Positions 52,806-63,965 of a stretch of DNA of 64,000 nt are shown here, one piece after another. Position numbers and translations under genes: made by a program. Below the pieces are notes generated by a model. That model did no database searches and was not told where the DNA came from. It saw nothing but the letters and a program-made list of their open reading frames with translations. Every line of letters starts with the position of its first letter. Within the stretch, counting starts at the first letter, position 1. Origin of the DNA: Dipylidium caninum (taxonomy: Eukaryota; Platyhelminthes; Cestoda; Cyclophyllidea; Dipylidiidae); contig QEYB01000629.1 in the NCBI GenBank assembly GCA_017562135.1, forward strand, positions 992,001-1,056,000, read 5' to 3'.

Positions 52806-52993
52806 TCAAAAGGGAGCATTGTTGTACACCCTGGATTCATGGAAGCCATCGAAGAAGCTGGAAATCGTTCCGAATGATGGCCTGAAATTGGGGTTGTACT
52901 GGAAACACCTAAGTATTGCGTCGTATACTTCCTGGCCCAGGTCGGGAGGCTTGTTATTGGTCAAACCCCTGTACAGCTGATTATGTGGGACAC
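52806..52993 (-). CDS. Pseudokinase gene terminal exon: C-lobe end
   Basis: The acceptor is CTTGTCCACAG. The exon encodes LGQEVYDAILRCFQYNPNFR and then PSFGTISSFF, the last helices of a tyrosine kinase, and ends with a stop at 52806. Its length of 188 bases equals exon 63540-63727 of the paralogue, which instead splices on to a short tail exon. Confidence 0.8.
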
Positions 52994-62000: not shown

Positions 62001-63965
62001 GTTCCTCGCGGCGCGTATTTCCACCTTGTCTAAATTTTTCCAGCAGCCTCGACAACACCACTCCTCCCCCTCCTCCCCCTCCCCCCCTCGCAGACTATCT
62101 GCGCTGTTTCGTGATGGACACTTGAGTGATTGTATCACCGAGTCGTTGAAGACCGATGGCGTCTCATGCATCCCGATTTCGCTTGAACCTGCGTTCGTTA
62201 AAGTACCTGAGAGAAGACCAAGGGTGTACGGCCAATATTCTGCATCTTCGTTCAACTGGAGGCATTTTTTTGTCCTTTCAGATCCTACACACCCATTGTT
62301 TCCCGTGCCTCTTAACGCGCCCTGTCCAAAGTCGAGTCCGGACACGGAGATGTTCAGTGATTGCATCATCAGTCGAAACAGCATCGTTTTCACGAAACCC
62401 CTGAGTCAAGGCTATTTCGGTGAGGTCTGGTTGGCCAAATACCGCGGAGTTGATGTGGCTGTGAAAAAGAGTCTGAAGACCTCCTCACGAAGGTTTGTGA
62501 TGGAGGAGTCCGAGGCAATGTACCGCCTCAACCATCCCCGACTGGTGCGACTCCTGGGCGTTTGTTGCGAGCCCATCACCGAGCCACTTCTCATCATCAC
62601 TGAGTTCATGCCCAAGGGAGCGCTAGATAACTATCTTATAAACGAAAAACCGCCTTTTGAAGAACTTCTGAGAATTCTACTGCAGGTAGGTTGGTCACTC
62701 TGTCATGCCTTCGTTGGCCAAAATCGACCCTCACTTCAACCTCGCGAGAGGATTTAGACTTACGTAAAGCCCCTCCCACCTCTCTGGGTCTTACACTTGC
62801 GATTTTCAACCCTTCCCAGGTGAGCGATGGAATGAGGTACTTGGAAACATGCGGGGTGGTGCACAACGACTTGAGAACAGCAAATGTTCTTGTAGACGCA
62901 GATAATTCCGTCAAAGTGGCTGATTTCGGACTGGCCAAAACACTCCACAATGATTACCGTGATGCGATCAGTGCGTATGGACTTTACTATCATCTTGTAA
63001 ATAAGTAAACACCTAAATAATGGCTTACTGTTCAAACTACGGGATGGTGGAAGGCGTTTTGGCTCTAACTAGACGTGATTCACTAGTCTCGCTTATATTA
63101 CCTAGCCGGAGTATATCCGATTCGGTGGACGGCGCCAGAGGCAATGGAATTTGGCAACCGGTATTCAATAAAAGGCGACGTCTGGTCATTTGGAGTTCTT
63201 ATGTATGAAGTCTTTACCTACGTGAGACAACCTTACGAAGGTGCGCGACTGTCCAGTGCTACATTGCGGTAAGAGTAGGGACCTAGTTATTTTCTGCCAG
63301 TGGGCGCCCCCATTCCCCCCACGAAAAGTGCATTGACTGCGCTATGCTGCTTAGGAGGTTAATTTTGTAATTAGAAGAATGGAAATTAAGATTTACATCG
63401 CCTTTATTGTGTCCTCATGCTTAAAATCCGGTAATTTAGTTTTACTCAAATATAATGAGTAGACTGTTTTACATCACTCATCCCATCGAGTTTTTGTCCA
63501 CACGCTTCATACTACGCTTCCCATCAAAACCTCACGCAGATATCGAAACCAATGACGAAGTGTGGGAGAAGATTAAAAATGGCTATCGAATGCGCAGTCC
63601 GGAAGAACTGGGCTACCGTTGTGATTACGAATTTTACGAAAAGATGCTCCACTGTTGGGATGCCACTCCATCCAACAGGCCAAGTTTCACAGATCTCTAT
63701 AACTTCTTCCAGTCTTCCATCACCGAGGTATCTAGGAATAAATGAACACGTATCCTTATCTTTCAATGACTTCAGCACAATTAAGTACACACTACCAGAG
63801 TTTTAATAAATAAAAAATTACCTATGCAATTAGTTTTTTTAACTCTCATACTCTCCAGTGGATATTTAATTTGCCAACTTTTCTCCTCAGGCATGGCGCA
63901 CAGACTCTGCGTCCGAAACCATAGGTGGTAAGCGAGGATTAGGCGAATACACCAAGAAGAATTGA
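58595..63965 (+). CDS. Src-like non-receptor tyrosine kinase, catalytically intact
   Basis: Exons are 58595-59004, 59598-59753, 62282-62685, 62820-62970, 63106-63240, 63540-63727 and 63891-63965. They encode 505 residues plus an unseen or very short N-terminal exon. Domain order is SH3 (about residues 38-95), SH2 (about 105-190), linker and kinase. Src kinases phosphorylate tyrosines at the membrane and adhesion sites. Key residues are kept: SH2 FILRPN Arg, LSQGYFGEV loop, VAVKK lysine, alpha-C Glu in [10 protein letters not shown], Thr gatekeeper (IITEFM), catalytic Asp ([10 protein letters not shown]), DFGLAK, activation-loop Tyr (HNDYRDAI), WTAPE and GDVWSFG. Deviations are HND for HRD and Ser for the first loop glycine. 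The tail ends LGEYTKKN, with a lone Tyr where Src has its inhibitory Tyr. It is divergent from a pseudokinase paralogue. Confidence 0.88.
59598..59753 (+). CDS. Plus kinase exon: second half of SH2
   Basis: The acceptor TTTTTCCACAG and donor CCAAG|GTGAGC are both phase 1. The exon encodes [30 protein letters not shown] and LDELIKFYQ. Confidence 0.85.
59754..62281 (+). other. Large intron between SH2 and kinase exons
   Basis: This 2,528-base interval separates the phase-1 donor at 59754 from the acceptor TTTTGTCCTTTCAG at 62281. It holds a GC-rich block at about 60.3-62.1 kb that is open in several frames on both strands, a poly-C run near 61040, a GGAGC tandem near 61636 and a CT-rich run near 62060-62090. 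No extra exon is needed for an in-frame SH2-to-kinase join. Confidence 0.7.
61636..61655 (+). repeat. GGAGC pentanucleotide tandem
   Basis: Four consecutive GGAGC units can be read directly within the GC-rich intron block. Confidence 0.8.
62282..62685 (+). CDS. Plus kinase exon: linker and kinase N-lobe
   Basis: The acceptor CCTTTCAG fits phase 1 and the donor CTGCAG|GTAGGT is phase 0. The exon reads [16 protein letters not shown], then [37 protein letters not shown] and [15 protein letters not shown]. The same frame is open upstream, but the acceptor, the phase and the homologous domain layout place the exon start here. Confidence 0.88.
62820..62970 (+). CDS. Plus kinase exon: catalytic loop and DFG
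   Basis: The acceptor is AACCCTTCCCAG and the donor ATCA|GTGCGT, phase 1. The exon reads [26 protein letters not shown] and KVADFGLAK. It is 151 bases, as in the paralogue. Confidence 0.88.
63106..63240 (+). CDS. Plus kinase exon: P+1 loop and helix F
   Basis: The acceptor is TATATTACCTAG and the donor GAAG|GTGCGC. The exon reads [36 protein letters not shown] and VRQPYE. The GTGAGA at 63222 looks like a donor, but using it would break the phase to the next exon; the donor at 63241 keeps it. Confidence 0.85.
63540..63727 (+). CDS. Plus kinase exon: C-lobe end
   Basis: The acceptor is CCTCACGCAG and the donor CCGAG|GTATCT, phase 0. The exon reads [37 protein letters not shown] and [11 protein letters not shown]. 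Confidence 0.85.
63891..63965 (+). CDS. Plus kinase terminal exon: C-terminal tail
   Basis: The acceptor TTTTCTCCTCAG fits phase 0. The exon encodes 24 residues starting [13 protein letters not shown] and ending LGEYTKKN, then TGA. It has no counterpart in the paralogue. The alternative is read-through of the previous donor, which would end VSRNK after a few codons. Confidence 0.65.
   Translation, partial: AWRTDSASETIGGKRGLGEYTKKN

What the first reader, a model, noticed from the sequence alone, without database searches (positions are those of the whole stretch)
52806..63965. Head-to-head pair of Src-like kinases, one active and one a pseudokinase
Two SH3-SH2-kinase genes are transcribed away from a common 1.4 kb spacer. 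The plus copy keeps every catalytic residue; the minus copy has lost the catalytic base. Shared regulation from one spacer would co-express an active Src-like kinase with an inactive relative that keeps its SH2 and could compete for or stabilise partners. Kinase-pseudokinase partnerships are established elsewhere (HER3, JAK JH2, STRAD). A divergently paired Src-type active/inactive set is not one I know of.
Basis: partly seen in the sequence, partly recalled or inferred. Interest (0 to 1): 0.82.

Follow-up and report, generated by a model that had tools for sequence, protein, structure and literature searches.

The report
Tapeworm Src kinase with pseudokinase neighbour
Two neighbouring tapeworm genes encode relatives of the Src signalling enzyme, one that looks active and one whose loss of the key catalytic residue is shared by other tapeworms, so the inactive one is probably a working non-enzyme protein and not a dying gene.

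Summary
The plus gene models as six exons, 447 residues, SH3-SH2-kinase; the minus gene as a Src-type protein whose HRD reads HTN and DFG reads DIG. The minus gene is not a local wreck: Echinococcus granulosus, Hydatigera taeniaeformis and Taenia crassiceps proteins (38-44% identity) carry the same HTNLKDTN and D[V/I]G and form one clade with it (100/100). It is an old pseudokinase that kept the SH2 phosphate-binding Arg, ATP-site Lys and Mg-site Asp/Asn, and lost the catalytic base and SH3 contact residues. In T. crassiceps one gene model fuses the two proteins, so there they appear to be neighbours on the same strand: linkage is seen twice, the divergent spacer only here. Co-expression and partnership are untested. 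Most likely function: a non-catalytic SH2 adaptor in tapeworm Src signalling. A new variant of a known kind (pseudokinase), interesting but no new category.

The parts
56816..57102 (-). minus gene, exon with degenerate SH3 and first half of SH2 (5' edge unsure; upstream start exon not identified)
   Evidence: spliced alignment to P0121; SH2 recognised by Pfam in the spliced protein, SH3 not
56508..56651 (-). minus gene, second half of SH2
   Evidence: GT-AG exon, phase 1/1 as in the plus gene
55496..55600 (-). minus gene, SH2-kinase linker exon (AHPAKLHCTQLIPI, matching ANPGYLQCTNLKPYF of E. granulosus)
55431..55495 (-). minus gene, proposed 65-nt intron absent from the plus gene
   Evidence: chosen by spliced alignment with and without a frameshift option; not confirmed by transcript
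55120..55430 (-). minus gene, kinase N-lobe (VALK kept, alpha-C Glu replaced by Ser)
54094..54244 (-). minus gene, catalytic-loop exon: HTNLKDTN at 54202-54179, DIG at 54142-54134; 151 nt, same length as the plus counterpart
53510..53644 (-). minus gene, activation-segment/APE exon (FDCWSAPEL), 135 nt, same length as the plus counterpart (the spliced aligner put its end at 53495)
52806..52993 (-). minus gene, last exon with C-terminal Tyr and stop
57103..58712 (.). spacer between the two SH3 exons; probably holds the unidentified first exons of both genes
58713..59004 (+). plus gene, SH3 and first half of SH2 (the Met at 58713 is probably internal, since several relatives extend upstream)
59598..59753 (+). 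plus gene, second half of SH2
62282..62685 (+). plus gene, linker and kinase N-lobe (VAVK, alpha-C Glu)
62820..62970 (+). plus gene, catalytic-loop exon: HNDLRTAN at 62862-62885, DFG at 62922-62930
63106..63240 (+). plus gene, APE exon
63540..63745 (+). plus gene, last exon; no C-terminal regulatory Tyr

Best explanation
The locus holds two members of a tapeworm radiation of Src-type kinases. The plus gene is a probably active kinase of a clade with HND in place of HRD and no C-terminal regulatory Tyr. The minus gene is an old, selectively kept pseudokinase. Shown by sequence: architecture, an intact spliced frame (with one proposed small intron), the same loss of the catalytic base in four species, retained SH2 Arg, retained ATP-site Lys and Mg-site Asp/Asn, lost SH3 contact residues. 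Indicated by one fused gene model: adjacency of the two genes in T. crassiceps. Inferred: the pseudokinase works as a non-catalytic adaptor that is brought to phosphotyrosine by its SH2 domain, with its kinase fold, perhaps still able to bind nucleotide, as a binding surface, so that it competes with or organises partners of the catalytic Src relatives. Whether its partner is the neighbour is open.
For: Orthologues with HTNLKDTN and D[V/I]G in 3 other species at 38-44% identity; next hit only E 1.3e-12. A profile of all four gave 8 hits at E 1e-30 or better: those 3, which were in the profile, at E below 1e-190, and 5 others at E above 1e-43; the 3 of those 5 that I looked at have ordinary HRD motifs. 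Clade support 100/100. No stop in 439 codons. Motif table of 40 rows: pseudokinase rows keep Lys in 4 of 4 and the SH2 Arg in 3 of 3 with an SH2; SH3 Trp and PxxY Tyr are absent in 3 of 3 with an SH3 (the PxxY Tyr is also absent in 9 of 11 HND rows, the Trp in 2 of 11). AlphaFold model of the E. granulosus orthologue: mean pLDDT 83.2, 18 of 25 ten-residue blocks of the kinase domain at 90 or more, nearest PDB folds c-Src and Hck.
Against: No transcript, binding or kinase data. The SH2 beta-D His is kept in E. granulosus and H. taeniaeformis but lost in the window copy (IFNY), so its phosphotyrosine affinity may be weak. Asp-to-Asn pseudokinases can keep some activity (HER3 and JAK2, as stated in a passage of PMC7586955). 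The 65-nt intron is a model.
Confidence: 0.5

Rival explanations
1. Dedicated pair: the pseudokinase binds the neighbouring HND kinase and regulates it in trans, taking over control that the HND kinase lost with its C-terminal Tyr and HRD Arg (HER3- or JAK JH2-like allostery).
For: Adjacent here, and apparently in T. crassiceps. The HND clade lacks a tail Tyr in 11 of 11 readable tails; the tapeworm HRD clade has one at position 22-23 after RPxF in 8 of 8, and 3 of 3 readable pseudokinase tails have one at 18-20.
Against: HND kinases exist in Hymenolepis, Mesocestoides, Spirometra and Schistocephalus, where no pseudokinase was found (not exhaustive). The tail Tyr is also absent in 4 of 4 trematode rows, so its loss does not call for a trans regulator. 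Trees do not decide whether the pseudokinase is sister to the HND clade (AU p 0.25; 72/82). Relative orientation differs between the two species.
Confidence: 0.2
2. Adjacency is a relic of local duplication among Src-type genes and the two proteins have unrelated roles.
For: Six other Src-like SH2-kinase loci were modelled in this genome, including a 91%-identical tandem pair, so local duplication happens; orientation is not conserved.
Against: Linkage appears to have survived long divergence (about 40% protein identity) in two lineages, although a rearrangement changed the relative orientation.
Confidence: 0.2
3. The minus protein is still a weak kinase despite D-to-N.
For: Lys, Mg-site Asp and Asn retained; [quoted passage not shown] E. 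granulosus keeps the alpha-C Glu.
Against: Alpha-C Glu is Ser here and Asp or Trp in the other two relatives; DFG Phe is lost in 4 of 4.
Confidence: 0.07
4. The minus locus is a decaying pseudogene.
For: Fast-evolving (end branch 1.23-1.38 against 0.63-0.68 for the plus protein); the frame needs an extra small intron.
Against: No stops in 439 codons, GT-AG sites at every modelled junction, 11 of 11 residues of HTNLKDTNVLL invariant in four species.
Confidence: 0.03

Closest known systems
HER3 (ErbB3) and JAK JH2 pseudokinase domains
   Same: Catalytic Asp of HRD replaced by Asn (swap described in a passage of PMC7586955). The second PDB sequence match of the minus kinase aligns to both kinase domains of a 1173-residue 'Tyrosine-protein kinase' (7t6f) that I take from memory to be a JAK.
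   Different: Those are a receptor and the pseudokinase half of a tandem kinase; here it is a free Src-type protein from a separate gene.
Src family kinases (Src, Hck, Fyn, Lyn)
   Same: Domain order; intron phases 1-1-0-1-1 shared with 4 of 6 other Src-like loci of this genome; best PDB sequence match of the plus protein is Hck; best fold matches of the E. granulosus pseudokinase model are c-Src and Hck.
   Different: Minus protein lacks catalytic base and SH3 contact residues; plus protein has HND and no tail Tyr. By whole-sequence score the first PDB row for the minus kinase is an EGFR tandem construct; among the three alignments shown, Src is the best single-domain match.
Tapeworm proteins P0121 (E. 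granulosus 'putative tyrosine-protein kinase'), P0122 (H. taeniaeformis), P0006 N-half (T. crassiceps 'HCK')
   Same: Orthologues, same HTN and D[V/I]G.
   Different: Sources name them as ordinary tyrosine kinases or leave them unnamed; in T. crassiceps apparently same-strand with the HND kinase.
EmTRL, a TGF-beta-receptor-like protein of E. multilocularis
   Same: A tapeworm protein for which a pseudokinase role has been raised (passage of PMC10073696).
   Different: Not a Src-type protein.

Membership tests
Src-type kinase (minus gene) | SH3-SH2-kinase order | tested here: inconclusive
   SH2 and kinase found by Pfam, SH3 below detection in the window copy, P0121 and P0122; the P0121 model aligns to Src over about 450 columns
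Src-type kinase (minus gene) | Phylogenetic place among Src-type kinases | tested here: met
   Inside a cestode group of Src-type kinases, 99/96 (four rows left out)
Src-type kinase (minus gene) | Catalytic Asp (HRD) and DFG | tested here: not met
   HTN and DIG; so it is a Src-type pseudokinase, not a Src kinase
Pseudokinase | Loss of at least one of VAIK Lys, HRD Asp, DFG Asp | tested here: met
   HRD Asp replaced by Asn in 4 of 4 rows
Pseudokinase | No phosphotransfer | not testable with these tools
   needs an assay
Src family kinase (plus gene) | SH3-SH2-kinase with catalytic Lys, Glu, Asp, DFG | tested here: met
Src family kinase (plus gene) | C-terminal Csk-type regulatory Tyr | tested here: not met
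   no Tyr in the tail, nor in the other 10 readable HND tails
Src family kinase (plus gene) | N-terminal myristoylation signal | not tested
   first exon not identified; P0002-P0005 and P0008 begin MP, P0081 begins MT
Kinase-pseudokinase regulatory pair (STRAD, HER3, JH2 type) | Physical interaction that changes activity of the active member | not testable with these tools
   no interaction data
Bidirectional gene pair | Divergent arrangement conserved or co-expressed | tested here: inconclusive
   divergent here, same-strand by the fused T. crassiceps model P0006; other species and expression not available

The most novel reading that the evidence does not exclude
Tapeworms have evolved a two-gene Src module in which the active kinase has lost its own off-switches (tail Tyr, HRD Arg) and a linked SH2-bearing pseudokinase, keeping a tail Tyr, supplies control in trans: autoinhibition moved from within one protein to between two.
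Probability: 0.12. Interest if true: 0.8.

Novelty: new variant of a known kind. Interest (0 to 1): 0.5.

Why it matters
A conserved Src-type SH2 pseudokinase is unusual: to my knowledge (recalled) no vertebrate Src family member is a pseudokinase, and none of the titles and abstracts listed by ten searches of the held library describes one in flatworms (several lists were cut short). Database entries call these proteins tyrosine kinases ('HCK'), so inhibitor programmes could treat a non-enzyme as an active target. The pair is a natural test of how much of Src signalling works without catalysis, and the HND, tail-less clade raises the question of how tapeworms switch Src off.

Tried and rejected
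Decaying pseudogene: disfavoured by frame, splice sites and cross-species motif conservation. Frameshift at the SH2-kinase junction: a 65-nt intron explains it and the spliced aligner preferred it at the penalties I set, but only a transcript would prove it. Recent inverted duplication: rejected; plus and minus proteins share 124 of 446 aligned columns and each has its own orthologues. Pseudokinase as sister of the HND clade: neither shown nor excluded (some cut points were rough, e.g. Pygocentrus Lyn and E. granulosus were cut short). First exons of both genes: candidates considered by eye in the spacer, none convincing. CAS C-terminal domain in this genome: no hit, but the control genomes gave none either, so uninformative. 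Pfam on single minus exons found no SH3 or SH2; only the spliced protein showed SH2. NCBIfam gave only sub-cut-off bacterial kinase names. No genome of a related tapeworm was available, so orientation elsewhere rests on one fused gene model. Species of the window not identified.

Full report
WHERE. The nearest proteins of the plus gene are from tapeworms (E. multilocularis 52%, Mesocestoides corti 51%, Hymenolepis microstoma 51%), so it is a tapeworm genome; the species was not identified.

WHAT IS THERE. The plus gene has six modelled exons with GT-AG junctions and 447 residues, and Pfam recognises SH3, SH2 and kinase. The minus gene has seven modelled exons; two kinase exons have exactly the lengths of their plus counterparts (151 and 135 nt) and the shared introns have the same phases. 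Four of six other Src-like loci of this genome (L009, L010, joined L011+L012, L013) show the same 1-1-0-1-1 phases; L014 and the joined L015+L016 do not in my models. So the pattern marks the family and not a special bond between the pair. Linking SH2 and kinase in one frame needs a 65-nt intron at 55495-55431, which spliced alignment to the E. granulosus protein chose over a frameshift at the penalties set. The 439 sense codons hold no stop; base shuffles average 20.4 and 0 of 20,000 are stop-free, a control that flatters a model whose exons were picked inside open frames.

CATALYTIC RESIDUES. In a table of 40 aligned rows, the plus protein has VAVK, alpha-C Glu, [11 protein letters not shown] and APE. 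HND occurs in 12 of 12 rows of its group and in none of the 24 rows outside the HND and pseudokinase groups, of which 22 read HRD, one HMD and one HGE. I named the HND group after reading this motif; trees then recovered it as one clade (100/98 with 9 rows; 99/98 with 8 rows; the other three rows were in no tree). The minus protein has VALK, Ser for the alpha-C Glu, HTNLKDTN, DIG and APE.

CONSERVATION OF THE LOSS. Searching with the minus protein gave 63 hits, three far above the rest: E. granulosus (E 1.7e-81, 39%), T. crassiceps (1.6e-71, 44%) and H. taeniaeformis (2.3e-65, 38%); the fourth has E 1.3e-12. All three have HTNLKDTN and D[V/I]G and share FDCWSAPEL. A profile of the four found no further member at E 1e-30 or better (only the 7,994 candidates sharing most words were scored, so absence in Hymenolepis, Mesocestoides or Spirometra is not proven); its five other hits include three Btk29A isoforms, and the three of the five that I looked at have HRD. 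Searching this genome with the E. granulosus protein hits four exons of the minus locus (68, 47, 47 and 41 bits); the single best exon hit is another kinase (C296, 71 bits), so the minus locus wins on the sum of exons and not on the best exon. Trees join the four at 100/100. With the HND clade and one HRD clade they form a cestode group (99/96, from which four rows were left out: three long branches, WIN_C755_HGE, WIN_C783b and Smansoni, and HND_Sparganum). In the full tree the 13 other rows are held together at 98/98, and two further loci of this genome, C783b and C755, fall on the cestode side.

REGULATION. Tail Tyr beyond position 12 after RPxF: 0 of 11 readable HND tails; at 22 or 23 in 8 of 8 readable tails of the cestode HRD clade; at 18, 18 and 20 in the three readable pseudokinase tails; at 22 in Patella, Solemya, Lyn and both Macrostomum rows; none in the 4 trematode rows. 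So the loss is not peculiar to the HND clade. Of 25 pseudokinase, HND and cestode-HRD rows, 20 have no Tyr in the first part of the activation loop; the window plus protein does have one (DYRD). These are sequence facts; their meaning for control is inferred.

LINKAGE AND ORIENTATION. T. crassiceps P0006 (696 aa) contains two kinase domains, first the pseudokinase, then the HND kinase. A predicted protein does not draw exons from both strands, so there the genes appear to be neighbours on one strand. The T. crassiceps genome paper used BRAKER2 with RNA-seq hints (PMC9128525, passages seen); that P0006 comes from that annotation is my assumption. So adjacency is seen in two lineages and the head-to-head order in one. 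The claim of shared control from one spacer is therefore weak.

STRUCTURE. AlphaFold2 on the E. granulosus orthologue with a 40-row alignment that is mostly ordinary kinases: mean pLDDT 83.2, pTM 0.60, residues 1-48 disordered. Foldseek: c-Src, Hck and other Src-family chains first, about 450 columns, TM around 0.5 and rmsd above 18 over the whole chain, presumably because domain placement differs.

HOW IT PROBABLY WORKS. The pseudokinase keeps what is needed to fold, to bind nucleotide (Lys, DxG Asp, catalytic-loop Asn) and, in E. granulosus and H. taeniaeformis, to bind phosphotyrosine (FxLR Arg, beta-D His; the window copy keeps the Arg only). It has lost the base, the DFG Phe and the SH3 contact residues. 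That is the profile of an SH2-led adaptor. A dedicated role as regulator of the neighbour is attractive but unproven, and HND kinases without a detected pseudokinase speak against an obligate pair.

LITERATURE. Ten library searches listed no title or abstract on a Src-type pseudokinase in flatworms; some searches listed only part of the papers found. I saw passages of PMC7586955, PMC9128525 and PMC10073696 (where the pseudokinase in question is the receptor-like EmTRL), and listings otherwise.

Noticed in passing
G000:C755:636812-646986 (loci L011, L012): A second Src-type pseudokinase in the same genome: HGELTASN (Asp to Glu) and NFG (Asp to Asn), SH3 and SH2 motif residues kept; best-scoring relative among the fetched proteins is an M. 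corti Src-type protein at 34%.
   Followed up: partly
window 7347-7709, minus: SH3 exon whose best PDB matches are BCAR1, CRK-associated substrate and a HEF-like protein (E 1.2e-21 to 4.6e-18): looks like a CAS-type scaffold, a classic Src substrate (recalled), about 45 kb from the Src pair.
   Followed up: partly
G000:C255:9500-17500 and 27500-35500 (L013, L014): Tandem Src-type kinase pair, 91% identical; one has HRD, the other HMD.
   Followed up: partly
G000:C817:131500-149000 (L015, L016): A Src/Frk-like kinase (HRDLAARN) with a nearly identical inverted copy of SH2 and kinase N-lobe exons close by: inverted duplication or assembly artefact.
   Followed up: no
window 49988-50404, minus: Intronless core histone H3 gene 2.4 kb beyond the last exon of the minus kinase.
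   Followed up: no
plus-gene clade: HND instead of HRD in 12 of 12 tapeworm rows, with no regulatory tail Tyr in 11 of 11 readable ones: a non-RD Src-type clade worth its own study.
   Followed up: partly
window 40237-40575, minus: C2H2 zinc-finger exon.
   Followed up: no
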